Shown here: one piece after another, positions 36,144-50,973 of the stretch
Position numbering within the stretch: the stretch's first letter is position 1
Layout of the letters: every line of letters begins with the position of its first letter
Source: a virus
Length of the DNA stretch: 64,000 bases
IMG/VR virus record: IMGVR_UViG_3300033571_024432
Coordinates: 1 to 64,000 of that record
Direction: 5' to 3' (one strand)
Translations under genes and position numbers: made by a program
The notes under the pieces: generated by a model
What the model was told of the DNA's origin: nothing
The model's input: the letters and a program-made list of their open reading frames with translations, nothing else
The model's database searches: none

Positions 36144-37181
36144 ATGGATCAAGAATTGTATTCAATTTTTTTAGAAAATGAAGTATTTGTAGATTTTAAA
36201 AAGTTTTTTAAGGATTTAAAAACTGATTTTAATATGTTGAGTTTACCTAAGCATTTCATAGGAAGATATGAAGAAGAAGTTGATAAGATTGAAAATTTGA
36301 TTATTAAGAAGGATGAGAAAAATTATAGATATGTGTTTAATAAGAATAATGAGTTATTTAAAAAAATACGAGATATAAGAGTTGATAAATTATTATTGAG
36401 TATGTATAAAAAGATTGAGAAGCATGAAGGTAATATTTCTTTGTTGAATAGTTTTCGTGATGGTGATTGTATTGAATATACTAGATCTGAGATTGTAACA
36501 GGTAGATTGAGTATTAAGAATGGTCCTAAATTGATGAATTTGCCTAAAAAATATAGAAATATATTGAAAAGTCGATTTGATAATGGCGAGATTTTGATGG
36601 TGGATTATAAATCTTTGGAACCGAGAGTTGCAAGATATATAGTGGGTGAGAAAGCTGCAGAGGATATATATCAGGACATTTGTGATAGAATGGATTTTTT
36701 GGTTGATAGAAGTGTGATGAAAAAAGCTGTGATATCTGTGTTATATGGTATATCAGAGGAAAGTATGAATATTGGAGAATTGTCTCTAGATAAGGTTAGA
36801 GACATCAGGATGAAAGTTTTGGAGTATTTTAATATAAATTATATTCTTAAACTTGCGATGCAACAGAACGCATCTGGATATTATATGACTTATTTTGGTC
36901 GACCTATTCATTGGAATAAAGAAGAAGTTCATTTGAATCAAATTTTGAATGGTTATATTCAAGGGACAGCAGTTGATGTTGCATTATCAGGATTTTTGGA
37001 GTTAGTTAATAATTTCGATGATAAAATGATACCAATTGGATTAATTCATGATGCGATGTTGGTAGATGTAGCAGCAGAAAGTAAAAATTCTTTTGTAAAG
37101 TTAGTAAAAAATAATTATAATTATAATAACTTAGGTTACTTTCCTTTAAATATAGAAACTATTTCACAAAGAAAGAGTTAA
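36144..37181 (+). CDS. Miniature family-A DNA polymerase (polymerase domain only)
   Basis: A 345-residue protein with family-A polymerase motifs in order: TGRLSIKNGPKLMNLP and a following R (119-138), motif A MVDYKSLEPRV (D154), motif B region RSVMKKAVISVLYG (189-202), YIQGTAVDVA (271-280) and motif C LIHDAMLVDV (H302, D303). There is no exonuclease domain and the fold is shorter than the usual 400-residue polymerase domain. Motif C reads HDA instead of HDE, while both catalytic aspartates remain. The location after baseplate genes is odd. Alternatives are a repair or primer-processing polymerase, or the main replicase with its exonuclease elsewhere. Confidence 0.85.
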   Translation: MDQELYSIFLENEVFVDFKKFFKDLKTDFNMLSLPKHFIGRYEEEVDKIENLIIKKDEKNYRYVFNKNNELFKKIRDIRVDKLLLSMYKKIEKHEGNISLLNSFRDGDCIEYTRSEIVTGRLSIKNGPKLMNLPKKYRNILKSRFDNGEILMVDYKSLEPRVARYIVGEKAAEDIYQDICDRMDFLVDRSVMKKAVISVLYGISEESMNIGELSLDKVRDIRMKVLEYFNINYILKLAMQQNASGYYMTYFGRPIHWNKEEVHLNQILNGYIQGTAVDVALSGFLELVNNFDDKMIPIGLIHDAMLVDVAAESKNSFVKLVKNNYNYNNLGYFPLNIETISQRKS

Positions 37182-42697: not shown

Positions 42698-43405
42698 ATG
42701 GCCGCACCTAAAAAGAAAATAAGTCAGGATTTACAACCTGATCTAATCACTGATGACTTTACTAGTGATCTCATTAAATCTCTAAATAAAGAACGTGGTA
42801 TGCGTATTGCATACAATCTCTCATCAGATGAATCACCTACACATGTCAAACGTTGGATTAGCACAGGCTCAATTCAACTTGACTATATTATTTCAAATCG
42901 TAAAAATGGCGGTCTTCCAGAAGGTCGTATTATCGAAATCTTCGGTCCACCATCGATTGGTAAATCACATATAGCCTCTCAGATTGCTAAATCAACTCAA
43001 AGAGCAGGTGGTATTGTTGTTTATATTGATACAGAAAATGCTGTTAGTATTGAAAATCTTAAAACTTTAGGTGTCGATATCTCAAAGCGCTTTGTCTATG
43101 TCGATACACACTGCACAGAAGAAGTCTTTAGTATCGCTGAAAGTACTATCATGAAATCTAAAGCTATGCAAAAAGATGTTCCTGTAACAATTATCTGGGA
43201 CTCAGTTGCAGCAACATCACCTAAGGCTGAATTGGCAGGTGAATACGATAAAGATAGTATCGGTCTTCAAGCTCGAGCCATTTCAAAAGGTATGAGAAAA
43301 ATTACAGGTGTTATCGCTAATCAGAATATTCTCTTTGTCTGTCTTAATCAAGTACGAACAAAGATGGGTGTAATGTATGGCGATCCTTCAACAACTCCTG
43401 GAGGT
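42698..43405 (+). CDS. uvsX: UvsX/RecA-type recombinase, exon 1
   Basis: 236 codons up to the inferred 5' splice site. It contains the Walker A region FGPPSIGKSHIA, VVYIDTENA, Walker B-like VTIIWDSVAA and ICLNQVR-like FVCLNQVRTKMG, ending STTPGG. If read on, the frame hits a stop at 43433-43435 inside the intron. Joined to exon 2 it gives TTPGG-VAIPFHSSVRIKL, the normal UvsX/RecA continuation. The complete protein is about 405 residues; T4 UvsX has 391. It catalyses strand exchange in phage recombination-dependent replication. AAAAGGA precedes the start. Confidence 0.93.
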
Positions 43406-44497
43406 GAAAGCTACGCCCCCTATTCTAGAGTATAAATAGAAAATTAATTCCGTGAATTGCTGGAAACCCTTTAGAGTCTTTATTACTACAACATGATAAG
43501 TAATTGTGAGTGTGAAAGTTTGAAAAAATAAAGAATTAGGCAATCAGCAGCCAAGCATCCTGGTGACAGGTTGAAGGTTCAGAGACTAGTGTTAGTAACC
43601 TTTATCGATTTGTCATTATTTACCACAGAAAAACGAAGAAAGATAAAGAAGAAAAGACCTATGAGCGCGGAACAAAAATATAAATGCGAAATTTGTGGAA
43701 AATATTTCAAGTCAATTACAAATTCACATCTAAAGAAACATCAAATTACAACATATGAATACAAAGATATGTATCCTAATGTTGTTTTTGGAAATTTTGA
43801 AAGATTTAATAATTGGAGAGTGTCAGAAGAGAATAAACAAAATTGCATAAAAATGTCGCAAAAAGTTTATTCAAATGATGATATTAATTCAAGAAGAGTA
43901 CAATCAATCAAAAAAGTTACAAAAAGTCAAGAATATAAAAGTAGTCAATCCCAAAAAATGAAATTAGTTGCAAAAACAGAGAAAATGATTTCTTTTTACA
44001 ATGAAGCAAAAGAAAGAATTACACCTTGGATGAAAAAATCTAATTTCGAAAGATGGGAAATATTATACGGTTTAGAAGAAGCAAATAGACGTTTAGAGGA
44101 TTGGACAAAAAGGAATGTTTTACCTTCTAATTCAAGAAATACTAAACCTGAAATATTATTCATGAATATTTTAGACAATCTATGCTTATCATTTACTACG
44201 CAGAAAAGAGTTGGTAAATATATTTGCGACTTCTATCTTCCTGACTATAATTTGATTGTTGAAATCGATGGTAATTATTGGCATGCAAATCCCGAGATAT
44301 ATAAATCGACAGATATTATTGGACCAAAAAGATTTTCAGCCCAGAAAATATGGGAAAAAGACAATAATAAAAGTGCGTATATTCTTAATAAAAATTTTAA
44401 TTTGTTAAGATATTGGGAAAATGATATTAAAAATATTTCGTATGAAAAAGTTTTTGAAGATATAGTCCAAACATCTAAGAAATTAGATGAAGAAAAG
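43406..44497 (+). mobile_element. Group I intron in uvsX, with homing endonuclease frame
   Basis: A 1092-base intron. Core elements: P at 43455-43466 (AATTGCTGGAAA), Q at 43541-43555 (CAATCAGCAGCCAAG), R at 43577-43588 (GTTCAGAGACTA) and S at 44457-44468 (AAGATATAGTCC). TGCTG (43458-43462) pairs with CAGCA (43545-43549) as P4, and GACTA in R pairs with TAGTC in S as P7. The exon end GGAGGT pairs with GCCCCC (43414-43419) as P1, with a terminal U-G and one mismatch. The intron ends with G at 44497. The endonuclease frame lies between R and S, in P8. Exact splice sites are inferred from protein continuity. Confidence 0.88.
43661..44497 (+). CDS. Intron homing endonuclease, Vsr-like (EDxHD type), with N-terminal zinc finger
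   Basis: 279 codons from ATG 43661 to the intron end; no stop before exon 2. The N-terminus has a C2H2-like finger (CEICGKYFKSITNSHLKKH) followed by EYKDMYP, like MucR/Ros-type DNA-binding fingers in phage endonucleases. The C-terminal nuclease domain has YICDFYLPDYNLIVEIDGNY, WHAN and later LNKNFNLLRYWENDI, the Vsr/PD-(D/E)xK pattern. Upstream in-frame starts overlap the intron core and are unlikely. In unspliced RNA the product would run on into the UvsX C-terminus. Confidence 0.85.
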
Positions 44498-45007
44498 GTC
44501 GCAATTCCTTTCCACTCATCTGTAAGAATTAAATTAGGCGCAGGTAGCCCAATTGAAGGTGCAGATAAAGAACCTATTGGTATTAATGTATCAGCGAAAA
44601 TTATTAAAAATAAAGTATCAGCCCCATTTAGAAAAGCTGAATTTAGAATTATTTTTGGTAAAGGCATTTTTGAACATGAAGAAATTTTTGATACATTAAG
44701 AAAATTAGGTGAATTTGAATATAATGGTAAAAAAGTGTGTATTGATGGCAATGGTGCTTGGAAATCATTAGTAGTTACTACAATGACAGATGTTATTGAG
44801 ATAGAAAAAAAGTTTTATAAGTCTGATTTCGATAAAATCATGAATGATCCTTTATATAAGGAATACATTGATGTTGCAATTGAAAAAGCATATACAAAAT
44901 CGTCCAATGATATTTTAGTAGAAGATATTGATCAAGATTCTTATATTGAAAATGAAGCTGCAGCGATGGCTTTAGTAGAAAATGATTATTTAGCAGGTGA
45001 TGATTGA
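44498..45007 (+). CDS. uvsX: UvsX/RecA-type recombinase, exon 2
   Basis: 169 codons and a stop. It begins with VAIPFHSSVRIKLGAGSPIE, the second DNA-binding-loop region of UvsX, and continues through FRIIFGKGIFEHEEIFDTLR to an acidic C-terminus (MALVENDYLAGDD). It is in the same frame as the intron endonuclease, with no stop between. The stop TGA overlaps the ATG of the next gene by one base (TGATG). Confidence 0.92.
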   Translation, partial: VAIPFHSSVRIKLGAGSPIEGADKEPIGINVSAKIIKNKVSAPFRKAEFRIIFGKGIFEHEEIFDTLRKLGEFEYNGKKVCIDGNGAWKSLVVTTMTDVIEIEKKFYKSDFDKIMNDPLYKEYIDVAIEKAYTKSSNDILVEDIDQDSYIENEAAAMALVENDYLAGDD

Positions 45008-47972: not shown

Positions 47973-49115
47973 ATGAAATATAATGGTATAGAAATTGATG
48001 TTAATTATGATAATAATTTAAGTGAACAAGCATATTCATTACTTAAAGATTATTATATGTTAGAAGGTGAAACAACACCTCAAATGAGTTATGCTAGGGC
48101 TGCATTAGCTTTTTGTTATAATGATTTTGAATTAGCACAAAGAATTTATGAATATGCAGCTAAAAACTGGTTTATGTTTAGCTCTCCAATTTTGTCAAAC
48201 GCTAAAACGCAAGACGGGAAAAACTCAAAAGGTTTACCTATCAGTTGTTTTTTAAGTTATGTTGATGATTCATTAGAAGGTTTAATGGATCACTCTAATG
48301 AATTAAGATGGATGTCTGTTAAAGGCGGTGGCGTTGGAGGTCATTGGTCAGCAGTTAGAGCAAATAGCGAAATTTCTCCAGGACCTATACCTTTTTTAAA
48401 GACTGTTGATGCAGATATGACAGCTTATAGACAAGGAAAAACTCGTAAAGGCAGTTATGCTGCATATATTGATATTAGTCACCCTGATATTGTTGAATTT
48501 TTAAATATTAGAGTACCTACAGGCGGTGATAGTCATCGTAAATGTTTTAATCTTAATAATGCAATTAATATTACAGATGATTTTATGAATGCAGTATTGG
48601 AAAACCAAGATTGGAAATTAATTGATCCTAAAACAAAAAGCGTTAGAGATACTATTAATGCACGTGAATTATGGCAACGTATTTTAGAAGTCAGATTTAG
48701 AACAGGTGAACCATATCTTAATTTCATTGATGAAGCGAATAGAAAATTACCACAATATCAACAAGAAAAAGATTTAAAGATACATGGCAGCAATTTGTGT
48801 ATAACTGGAGATTCTTTATTAACAGTTATGATTGATAATCAAATCAAAGAAATGAATATTAAAGACGTTATTACAGAGTTTGAAGAAAATAAAGATATTT
48901 ATGTATTATCATATAATATTGATAAGAAAATAAATGAGTTTCAAAAAGTGTTAGAAGGTCAATTAATGTCAGAAAGTGCTGAATTGTTGGAAATCGAGGA
49001 TGATGAAACAGGATTTAAATTAATTTGTACACCTGAGCATTTGATTTTTACAAAAAACAGAGGCTACGTGATGGCTAAAGACCTTACAGAACAAGATGAA
49101 CTGTTAATAAAATAA
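47973..49115 (+). CDS. nrdA: Ribonucleotide reductase large subunit, N-terminal half fused to N-intein
   Basis: A 380-residue product. Residues 1-275 are the NrdA N-terminal part (PISCFLSYVDDSLEGLMDHS, SVKGGGVGGHWSAVRA, RKGSYAAYIDISHPDIVEFL) ending HGSNL. Residues 276-380 are an N-terminal split-intein half beginning with Cys. No ATP-cone is present, so dATP overall control is probably missing. The C-terminal half is at 49912, beyond a GIY-YIG gene. The class Ia partner NrdB is at 51765. The break falls exactly before the active-site Cys of SNLC. Confidence 0.93.
   Translation: MKYNGIEIDVNYDNNLSEQAYSLLKDYYMLEGETTPQMSYARAALAFCYNDFELAQRIYEYAAKNWFMFSSPILSNAKTQDGKNSKGLPISCFLSYVDDSLEGLMDHSNELRWMSVKGGGVGGHWSAVRANSEISPGPIPFLKTVDADMTAYRQGKTRKGSYAAYIDISHPDIVEFLNIRVPTGGDSHRKCFNLNNAINITDDFMNAVLENQDWKLIDPKTKSVRDTINARELWQRILEVRFRTGEPYLNFIDEANRKLPQYQQEKDLKIHGSNLCITGDSLLTVMIDNQIKEMNIKDVITEFEENKDIYVLSYNIDKKINEFQKVLEGQLMSESAELLEIEDDETGFKLICTPEHLIFTKNRGYVMAKDLTEQDELLIK
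48798..49112 (+). other. N-terminal half of a split intein (NrdA-2-like)
   Basis: 105 codons starting with the nucleophilic Cys in CITGDSLLTV (block A). Then IYVLSYNIDKK, ELLEIEDDETG and, at block B, ICTPEHLIFTKNRGYVMAKD, ending EDELLIK-like (EQDELLIK). By recall it resembles the published metagenomic NrdA-2 split intein closely. It should associate with the 34-residue C-half and splice the two NrdA parts in trans. Confidence 0.9.
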
Positions 49116-49160
49116 TGAAATTCACTCAGCCATAATTCTATATAAAAAAAAGGAAAACAA

Positions 49161-49922
49161 ATGAGTGAAAAATTTATTATTTATATTCATACTTTTAAAT
49201 CAACAAATAAATCATATATTGGTTATACATCATTAACTATTGAAAAAAGATTGCATAAACATATATTAAATTGTAAAGCAGGTTTTGAATCAAAGTTTTA
49301 TAGGGCTATAAAAAAATATGGAGTATCTGATATTGAAAGTCATATTTTACATGAATGTAAAAGTAAAGAAGAAGCAAAAGAAAAAGAAATCGAAATGATA
49401 AAAAATTTTGACACATTTGAAAATGGTCTAAATGAAACAATAGGCGGTGATGGAGGATGGATTGTTCCTGATGCTAAACTTGAAAGATGGAAGAAAACAA
49501 AAAGTGAAAGAATGTTAGGAGAGAGAAATCCGACATATTCAGGTGTAAAGGATATTGAAATTTTAGAAAAAGCATATGATTATTTTCTTAAGACAAATCA
49601 TATGCCGATTCGAAAATGGCAAATGTTTAGTAGCAAAGAATATAATTTTCCTAAGTCATATTCAAAATTTAGATTTAGAGAATATGGCTCAGGTTTAAAA
49701 GGTTTTAAAAATGCGATGAAAGAAATATATTCTCTAAATGATAATGATTTCAAATATGTCATAACCCAAGAACATATATCAAAGTTATCCAATTCAAAAA
49801 ATGGAAAGCATTGGTATATTAATATACATACGCAACAAAGAAGACAGTGTTTTGAGAAAGACATTGATAGAAAAGATTGGTTAACAGCCAATGAGATTAA
49901 AGGATTAAAAAATGGCAATTAA
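49161..49922 (+). CDS. Free-standing GIY-YIG homing endonuclease within split nrdA
   Basis: A 253-residue protein. GIY-YIG core FIIYIHTFKSTNKSYIGYTS, EKRLHKH with the conserved Arg, FYRAIKKYG and a Glu-rich helix ending ETIGGDGGW. The C-terminal part has NUMOD-like DNA-binding features (RNPTYSG, then a region of basic helices with SKLSNSKNGKHWY). It lies between the two halves of nrdA and overlaps the start of the second half by 11 bases. Inference: a homing enzyme that spreads the fractured nrdA allele. AAAGGAAAAC precedes the ATG. Confidence 0.88.
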   Translation: MSEKFIIYIHTFKSTNKSYIGYTSLTIEKRLHKHILNCKAGFESKFYRAIKKYGVSDIESHILHECKSKEEAKEKEIEMIKNFDTFENGLNETIGGDGGWIVPDAKLERWKKTKSERMLGERNPTYSGVKDIEILEKAYDYFLKTNHMPIRKWQMFSSKEYNFPKSYSKFRFREYGSGLKGFKNAMKEIYSLNDNDFKYVITQEHISKLSNSKNGKHWYINIHTQQRRQCFEKDIDRKDWLTANEIKGLKNGN

Positions 49923-50013
49923 AATAAAGAAAATTGAAAATACACAAGCTGTATACGATATTAAAGTAGAAAATAATCAAAATTTCTTTGCAAATAATAT
50001 GTTAATTCATAAT
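49912..50013 (+). other. C-terminal half of a split intein
   Basis: 34 codons from ATG 49912, ending VYDIKVENNQNFFANNMLIH and then N; the next codon is Cys (50014-50016). This is the block F/G pattern (VYDI, FFANN, HN-C) of C-inteins. Together with the 105-residue N-half it makes a compact mini-intein. Confidence 0.92.
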
Positions 50014-50973
50014 TGCAACGAGATTCATCTCGCAACTAACAAAGATCGAAGTGCAGTTTGTTGTTTATCATCATTAAACTTAGAAAAATTTGAAGAATGG
50101 AAAAATACAACAATCGTCGAAGATTGCATCACTTTTTTAGACAACGTACTTCAATATTTCATTGATAATGCTACAGATATAGGATTAAAAAAGGCTCGTT
50201 TTAGCGCAATTCAAGAAAGATCTTTAGGATTAGGTGCAATGGGTTTTCATGCTTATTTACAATCAAAAAATATACCATGGGAAAGTGCATTAGCTAAATC
50301 TCAAAATATGAAAATTTTCACATTAATTAAAGAAAGAGCATTTTCACAGACAAAAAAGCTTGCAAAAGAAAGAGGAGAGGCCCCTGATGCTATTGGTTAT
50401 GGCGTCAGAAATGCTCATCTTTTAGCTATAGCCCCTAATGCAAATAGTTCTATTATCGCAGGTACTTCTCCGTCAATAGAACCATATAAAAGTAATGCAT
50501 ATACACATCGTACTCGAGCAGGAGCTCATTTAGTTAAAAATCGTTATTTAGAAAATATACTAAATGAAAAATCTTTAAAAATTGAAGAAGAAAATAGACA
50601 AATTTGGTTAAATGAATTATGGACATCAATTATTACAAATGATGGATCAGTTCAGCATTTAGATTGTTTAAATGAATGGGAAAAAAATGTATTTAAAACA
50701 GCTTTTGAAATTGATCAAAGATGGTTAATTGATCATGCCGCTGATAGACAAGAATTTGTTTGTCAAGGACAAAGCGTAAATCTATTTTTTCCAGCAGGTA
50801 CAGATAAAGCAATTGTAAATGCTGTGCATTTAAGAGCATGGAAAAATAAATTAAAAGGTTTATATTATCTTCGTACAAATTCAGGTGCAAAAGCAGAAAA
50901 TGTCAGTGAAAAAGTCAGAAGTGATAAATTAAAAGACTTTAAAGATACTGATTGTTTAAGTTGTCAAGGATAA
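49912..50973 (+). CDS. nrdA: C-intein fused to ribonucleotide reductase large subunit, C-terminal half
   Basis: A 353-residue product: 34-residue C-intein plus 319 residues of NrdA beginning CNEIHLATNKDRSAVCCLSS. It contains the radical-relay and active-site region (AIAPNANSSIIAGTSPSIEP), LRAWKNKLKGLYYLRT with the conserved tyrosines, and the C-terminal redox pair CLSC. After trans-splicing the complete NrdA would have 594 residues, HGSNL-CNEIHL at the junction, restoring the active-site SNLC motif. Confidence 0.93.
   Translation: MAIKIKKIENTQAVYDIKVENNQNFFANNMLIHNCNEIHLATNKDRSAVCCLSSLNLEKFEEWKNTTIVEDCITFLDNVLQYFIDNATDIGLKKARFSAIQERSLGLGAMGFHAYLQSKNIPWESALAKSQNMKIFTLIKERAFSQTKKLAKERGEAPDAIGYGVRNAHLLAIAPNANSSIIAGTSPSIEPYKSNAYTHRTRAGAHLVKNRYLENILNEKSLKIEEENRQIWLNELWTSIITNDGSVQHLDCLNEWEKNVFKTAFEIDQRWLIDHAADRQEFVCQGQSVNLFFPAGTDKAIVNAVHLRAWKNKLKGLYYLRTNSGAKAENVSEKVRSDKLKDFKDTDCLSCQG

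What the first reader, a model, noticed from the sequence alone, without database searches (positions are those of the whole stretch)
43406..45007. uvsX group I intron whose endonuclease frame runs in-frame into exon 2
Seen: complete P, Q, R, S core elements with P4 and P7 pairing, a P1 with the exon end, and a Vsr-like endonuclease frame in P8 that includes the S element and crosses the 3' splice site without a stop, continuing for 169 codons as the UvsX C-terminus. Unspliced RNA would thus give an endonuclease-UvsX fusion, while spliced RNA gives UvsX. This links endonuclease production to splicing failure, and the endonuclease would carry a recombinase C-terminus.
Basis: partly seen in the sequence, partly recalled or inferred. 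Interest (0 to 1): 0.8.

Follow-up and report, generated by a model that had tools for sequence, protein, structure and literature searches.

The report
Intron endonuclease reading frame enters exon
A self-splicing intron in a phage's recombinase gene carries a DNA-cutting enzyme whose reading frame has lost its own stop codon and runs in frame into the recombinase's second half, an unusually far case of a known evolutionary drift called core creep, so unspliced RNA would encode a two-gene fusion protein.

Summary
Window 43406-44497 is a group I intron in a uvsX/recA-type gene: Rfam RF00028 halves at E 2e-8 and 3e-3, intact uvsX genes joining exactly at 43405/44498, and covariation in P3, P5, P6a, P8, P9 and P10. 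Its 279-codon ORF is a Vsr/EDxHD-type homing endonuclease (fold match to I-Bth0305I and Vsr). The coding sequence overlaps P3, P8, P7, P9 and the 3' splice site and runs without a stop into exon 2 for 169 codons.

It is not a sequencing error: two further contigs show the same endonuclease-uvsX fusion frame and a third shows its 3' end. It is not universal either. The sister intron L044/L045 has TAATAGTAA just before the splice site, L141 has TAA, and L091/L137/L145 end on a TGA made of two intron bases and the first exon base. In the survey, every other intron endonuclease frame crossing the S element stops at or within 24 codons after it.

Best reading: a mobile intron whose endonuclease ORF underwent 'core creep' (Edgell 2011) downstream through the 3' splice site. 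The known exon fusions I found are all to the upstream exon. The fusion is tolerated and persists, but selection for it, or a regulatory role, is not shown.

The parts
42698..43405 (+). uvsX exon 1 (RecA core with Walker A)
   Evidence: Pfam RecA 5.5e-48 and PHROG UvsX-like 3.6e-60; strong purifying selection, dN/dS 0.036 against L045
43406..44497 (+). group I intron, 1092 nt, phase 0 in uvsX
   Evidence: RF00028 hits, intronless relatives, covariation
43400..43420 (+). P1: exon end GGAGGU (43400-43405) with IGS GCCCCC (43415-43420), U.G at the splice site; IGS 43410-43414 also forms P10 with exon 2 44498-44502
   Evidence: P10 is perfect in L043/L044/L141 and 4 of 5 pairs in the window
43448..43454 (+). 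P3 5' strand, paired with 43666-43672 (ORF codons 2-4)
   Evidence: UUCCGUG/CGCGGAA against UCCCGUG/CGCGGGA in L091/L137/L145
43457..43462 (+). P4 5' strand (P element), paired with 43545-43550 (Q element)
43584..43588 (+). P7 5' strand (R element), paired with 44463-44467
   Evidence: invariant
43661..44497 (+). homing endonuclease ORF, 279 codons inside the intron: C2H2-like zinc finger, helical middle, Vsr/EDxHD nuclease domain
   Evidence: Pfam DUF559 1.2e-8 and Vsr 7e-6, TIGR00632 vsr 4e-9, model matches Vsr 1cw0 Z 12.8 and I-Bth0305I 3r3p Z 11.3, dN/dS 0.17-0.45
43673..43679 (+). P8 5' strand inside ORF codons 5-7, paired with 44450-44456
   Evidence: CAAAAAU/GUUUUUG (window), CAAAGAU/AUCUUUG (L044), CAUAAAGU/ACUUUAUG (L141)
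44456..44470 (+). S element GAAGAUAUAGUCCAA, read in frame as E-D-I-V-Q; holds the P7 3' strand
44472..44489 (+). P9 hairpin CAUCUAAGAAAUUAGAUG inside the ORF
   Evidence: covaries with CCUCA..UGAGG in L091/L137/L145
44490..44497 (+). 8-nt tail AAGAAAAG up to omega-G, without a stop in the ORF frame
   Evidence: L043 ATAGCAAG, L058 ATGATAAG, L012 ACAGCAAG open; L044/L045 AGTAATAGTAAAG with three stops
44498..45007 (+). uvsX exon 2, 169 codons + TGA, in frame with both exon 1 and the endonuclease ORF
   Evidence: Pfam RecA 4.8e-9; dN/dS 0.049; its C-terminal domain matches MsRecA 271-330, Z 5.1

Best explanation
A mobile, presumably self-splicing group I intron of the T4-phage kind (probably group IA) sits between codons 236 and 237 of uvsX and carries an EDxHD/Vsr-type homing endonuclease in P8. 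Spliced RNA gives UvsX; exon 1 read into an unspliced RNA stops at UAA 43433-43435, before the core. The endonuclease ORF has crept downstream: it includes P3(3'), P8, P7(3') and P9, has no stop in the intron and borrows exon 2's stop. Any ribosome that translates it to the end, on unspliced RNA or on the intron-exon 2 splicing intermediate, makes endonuclease + ~60 unfolded residues + the UvsX C-terminal domain. Excised intron RNA would be a non-stop message. The fusion is a tolerated result of core creep after loss of a stop, not a shown regulatory device. Shown: intron anatomy, junction, frame, relatives, mobility signature, purifying selection. Inferred: splicing, translation, and that the endonuclease works with the tail.
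For: RF00028 hits; exact junction in intronless uvsX; covariation including P10 and P8 within the ORF. Same fused frame in L043 and L058, 3' end in L012. Graded termination states in homologous uvsX introns: TAA TAG TAA in the intron (L044/L045), TAA (L141), TGA split by the 3' splice site (L091, L137, L145), none (window, L043, L058). In the S-element survey other HEG frames end at the S element's own UAA (EDIV*) or within 24 codons. Mobility: L043 and L045 introns are 98.9% (5' core) and 85% (HEG) identical while exons are 77.7% and 68%. HEG dN/dS 0.17-0.45, uvsX dN/dS 0.04-0.05. Core-creep concept: PMC3073962.
Against: No RNA or protein data. The fusion persists in several branches although single-base routes to a stop exist in some of them, which leaves room for weak selection to keep it. 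The window's P10 has one mismatch (C.U) and P1 an A.C mismatch.
Confidence: 0.74

Rival explanations
1. The stop-less intron is a selected safety catch. Complete endonuclease can only be made while exon 2 is still attached, so its synthesis is tied to unspliced RNA, and excised intron RNA yields non-stop products that are destroyed by trans-translation. In this reading, a stop outside the intron is the point, and the fused tail or the split TGA are two ways of achieving it.
For: In the window, L043, L058, L091, L137 and L145 the endonuclease stop lies wholly or partly in exon 2. Translation start and end both overlap core helices (P3, P8, P7, P9).
Against: L044/L045 and L141 have stops inside the intron and look equally intact; the neutral chance of an open in-phase tail is about 25%; no expression data.
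Confidence: 0.12
2. The UvsX tail adds function to the endonuclease, for example dsDNA binding or recruitment of the recombination machinery through the RecA-type C-terminal domain.
For: The model of the fusion gives a confident separate C-terminal domain at 338-412 that matches MsRecA 271-330 at Z 5.1; HEG under purifying selection.
Against: Residues 274-337, orphaned RecA-core strands, are predicted unfolded; related endonucleases without the tail exist (L044/L045, L141, L091, L137, L145) and the tail-less L045 intron shows the mobility signature with L043.
Confidence: 0.06
3. The insertion no longer splices and uvsX is expressed in two pieces, a truncated UvsX of 245 residues and an endonuclease-UvsX fusion, in the manner of a fractured gene.
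For: A relative, L014, does have a uvsX gene broken by a split intein; nrdA in this window is broken the same way.
Against: All core helices are intact and covarying; no intein motif at this site in the window; the exon 1 piece ends in the intron without a trans-splicing partner; uvsX exons are under strong purifying selection.
Confidence: 0.04
4. A stop codon near 44490 was lost through a sequencing or assembly error.
For: Single metagenomic contig; the tail is only 8 nt.
Against: L043, L058, L012 and the ORF-less intron L014, from other samples, have the same tail length and no stop.
Confidence: 0.02

Closest known systems
I-Bth0305I and the EDxHD/Vsr-like homing endonuclease family
   Same: Nuclease domain fold (3r3p, Z 11.3 over 95 of 97 residues); phage group I intron host; from memory, I-Bth0305I is also in a phage recA gene
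   Different: Only about 20-23% identity over the catalytic domain; here the ORF lacks its own stop and runs into exon 2; zinc-finger N-terminus and helical middle were not compared
Core creep of intron ORFs (Edgell, Chalamcharla and Belfort 2011, PMC3073962), e.g. I-TevI in the T4 td intron
   Same: ORF extended into P7 and other core elements by loss of stops; translation and folding compete
   Different: I-TevI ends inside the core; here the ORF goes through P9 and the 3' splice site and is fused to the downstream exon. Reviewed exon fusions are to the upstream exon (PMC8393795, PMC10448965)
[quoted passage not shown]
   Same: Intron ORF and exon share one reading frame so unspliced RNA gives a fusion protein
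   Different: There the exon is N-terminal and supplies translation initiation; here the exon is C-terminal and supplies termination

Membership tests
Group I introns (Rfam RF00028) | P3-P9 core with P, Q, R, S elements | tested here: met
Group I introns (Rfam RF00028) | U.G pair at the 5' splice site, omega-G at the intron end, P10 | tested here: met
   U43405.G43415; G44497; P10 4 of 5 pairs in the window, covarying in relatives
Group I introns (Rfam RF00028) | score above the curated gathering cut-off | tested here: not met
   39.9 and 22.9 bits in two pieces against 50; probably because the ORF splits the match
Group I introns (Rfam RF00028) | self-splicing activity | not testable with these tools
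   needs in vitro transcription
EDxHD homing endonucleases (I-Bth0305I) | Vsr-like catalytic fold | tested here: met
EDxHD homing endonucleases (I-Bth0305I) | conserved acidic and His active-site residues | tested here: inconclusive
   CDFY, E(I/V)DGxY/FWHANP are invariant among the relatives that cover them; not superposed residue by residue on 3r3p
EDxHD homing endonucleases (I-Bth0305I) | cleavage of the intronless allele near the insertion site | not testable with these tools
   mobility only inferred from intron/exon divergence
Core-creep intron ORF | ORF includes core structural elements | tested here: met
   P3(3'), P8, P7(3'), P9 within the coding sequence
Core-creep intron ORF | variable position of the stop among homologues | tested here: met
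   four termination states in homologous uvsX introns
Fractured gene (split intein plus free-standing endonuclease) | intein halves on both gene pieces | tested here: not met
   no intein motif at 43435 or 43661; Pfam scan of both pieces shows none

The most novel reading that the evidence does not exclude
The uvsX introns of this clade have moved the endonuclease's stop codon out of the intron on purpose: intact endonuclease can be made only before the second splicing step, spliced-out intron RNA makes only non-stop products, and in the window's clade the active endonuclease is a fusion bearing the recombinase's C-terminal domain.
Probability: 0.1. Interest if true: 0.72.

Novelty: new variant of a known kind. 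Interest (0 to 1): 0.42.

Why it matters
It extends core creep to its far end, through the 3' splice site into the downstream exon, and gives homologous introns at one site with four ways of ending the endonuclease (stop in the intron, stop split by the splice site, no stop, ORF lost). That makes a testable series for asking whether the position of an intron ORF's stop affects splicing, endonuclease level and homing. It also shows a simple origin for such cases: many phage S elements (GAAGAUAUAGUCUAA) supply the endonuclease stop themselves, and the U-to-C form (GUCCAA) removes it.

Tried and rejected
Rfam at gathering threshold found nothing and the whole-record RF00028 search also missed the intron; only the local E-value scan found it. 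A T4-late-promoter-like TATAAATA at 43431 is conserved in the close relatives but the motif occurs 30 times in the window against 30.5 expected, so no promoter claim is made. No significant hairpin hides the endonuclease start (z -0.79). Genome contigs held no relative of the endonuclease. L171 looked like another fusion in the survey, but it is a portal-like protein with EDIVQ by chance and no intron. Sequence search of the PDB gave only zinc fingers and a weak 3hrl hit; the fold search was needed. Literature search for fusion to a downstream exon found only upstream fusions and unrelated exon duplications; subscription papers were not searchable.

Full report
WHAT IS THERE. The window lies in a 116.7-kb virus record. 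Its uvsX gene, next to a gp32-like SSB, a 5'-3' exonuclease and a DnaB-type helicase, is interrupted after codon 236. Exon 1 (42698-43405) matches Pfam RecA at 5.5e-48 and exon 2 (44498-45007) at 4.8e-9. At least 25 related uvsX genes have no insertion and read through the junction without a gap, e.g. ACTCCTGGTGGT|GTAGCGATTCC. This fixes the intron at 43406-44497 (a shift by one base would give the same mRNA, but the U at 43405 is the canonical one).

INTRON. The local Rfam scan finds RF00028 in two pieces (E 2.3e-8 and 0.0027) on either side of the ORF. I aligned eight uvsX introns with the ORF cut out (window, L043, L044, L014, L091, L137, L145, L141) and counted a hand-made P1-P10 structure. 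97.2% of cells pair (slid controls 32-46%), and 12 of 50 pairs change on both sides (shuffled 6.7 +/- 1.3). Examples: P3 UUCCGUG/CGCGGAA against UCCCGUG/CGCGGGA; P9 CAUCU/AGAUG against CCUCA/UGAGG; P8 CAAAAAU/GUUUUUG against CAAAGAU/AUCUUUG and CAUAAAGU/ACUUUAUG; P10 exon 2 GUAGC with IGS GUUAC (L043) against AAGGC with GUCUU (L141). Helices with no variation (P4, P7, most of P3) neither support nor oppose. Splicing itself is inferred. uvsX exons are under strong purifying selection (dN/dS 0.036 and 0.049 against L045), so an unspliceable insertion is unlikely.

ENDONUCLEASE. ORF 43661-44497 carries a C2H2-like finger, a helical middle and a Vsr-like nuclease domain (Pfam DUF559 1.2e-8, Vsr 7e-6; TIGR00632 4e-9). 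The AlphaFold model of the fused frame matches Vsr (1cw0, Z 12.8, 115 residues) and the catalytic domain of the EDxHD homing endonuclease I-Bth0305I (3r3p, Z 11.3, 95 of 97 residues). Pairwise dN/dS is 0.17-0.45. The coding sequence contains the 3' strand of P3 (codons 2-4, right after the AUG), both strands of P8, the 3' strand of P7, and P9, so a ribosome on this ORF must open the core at both ends. That competition is general for such introns (PMC3984707 and PMC3073962).

RUN INTO EXON 2. From 43661 the frame is open to 45007. The same is true in L043 (65% HEG identity, 449-aa frame) and in L058 (HEG 5' part off the contig); L012 holds only the 3' end, also open. The nearest exceptions are L044/L045: their HEG groups with L043's (support 0.995), but the tail is 5 nt longer and reads TAA TAG TAA before the splice site. 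More distant uvsX introns (45-47% HEG identity): L141 has TAA inside the intron and L091, L137, L145 have TGA formed by the last two intron bases and the first base of exon 2. On the HEG tree the open state is most simply ancestral to the window's clade and lost once in L044/L045, though the inner node joining L043/L044 to window/L046 is weak (0.625). A neutral tail of this length, given that the ORF crosses P9, is in phase and open about 25% of the time, so the fusion alone is no evidence of selection.

SURVEY. Scans for S elements in IMG/VR brought 261 sites in 239 loci, many of them not introns. In the GUCCAA and GUCUAA forms only the E-D-I-V frame is open. All other HEG-sized frames that cross the S element stop at its own UAA (EDIV*, about ten cases of several nuclease types) or 6-24 codons on; none outside the window's clade continues as the host protein (L171 is a chance match in a portal-like protein).

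MOBILITY. L043 and L045 share 98.9% identity in the 5' core and 85% in the HEG but only 77.7% and 68% in the flanking exon stretches. This fits horizontal transfer of the intron between uvsX lineages. One of the pair is fused, the other has stops, so neither state prevents spread. L014 carries a 291-nt ORF-less version (HEG start ATG changed to ACG, P8 closed as CAAAAAC-AATTT-GTTTTTG), i.e. ORF loss.

MECHANISM. Most likely: ribosomes on exon 1 stop at UAA 43433-43435; the core folds; splicing gives UvsX. Endonuclease is made from RNA that has not completed splicing. In this clade such product carries the exon 2 residues: about 60 unfolded residues (model pLDDT under 50 at 274-337) and a folded UvsX C-terminal domain (338-412, matching MsRecA 271-330 at Z 5.1). 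From excised intron RNA the ORF has no stop. These steps are inferred.

KNOWN OR NEW. Extension of intron ORFs into core sequence by stop loss is the core-creep model (PMC3073962). Reviews and examples I could read describe fusion to the upstream exon (PMC8393795, PMC10448965). Fusion to the downstream exon across the 3' splice site was not found in the held literature, but most subscription papers are not in it. I rate it a new variant of a known kind.

Noticed in passing
window 47973-50973: nrdA is a fractured gene: NrdA N part with an intein N half (47973-49115, PF14890 4.5e-4), a free-standing GIY-YIG ORF (49161-49922), and an intein C half ending ..NMLIHN|CNEIH fused to the NrdA C part (49912-50973, PF14890 5e-7).
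   Followed up: partly
L014 1205-4120: uvsX broken twice within five codons: a split intein pair around a 357-aa endonuclease-like ORF (GDPS|CVDPF... and ..QVNHN|TTPGG) and then the ORF-less group I intron, so UvsX would need both protein trans-splicing and RNA splicing.
   Followed up: partly
L091 (minus strand), L031, L033: uvsX exon 1 or intact uvsX shows an intein C-terminal motif (..ILSHN|TMYGDP or ..VLSHN|TMYGDP) a few codons upstream of the intron site, so this RecA loop is a hot spot for inteins and introns.
   Followed up: no
L179, L194, L206, L208, L233, L234, L239, L241, L272, L300 (S-element sites): Intron ORFs of these loci end exactly in the S element (EDIV*): the catalytic-core spelling GAAGAUAUAGUCUAA supplies the stop codon itself.
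   Followed up: partly
L131 around 1742: A GIY-YIG-like intron ORF continues 24 codons past S and probably ends out of frame inside exon 2; the splice site was not determined.
   Followed up: no
window 36144-37181: ORF matching only the C-terminal part of a family A DNA polymerase (PF00476 residues 110-357, PHROG 17 895-1196 of 1445); the rest of the polymerase was not located.
   Followed up: no
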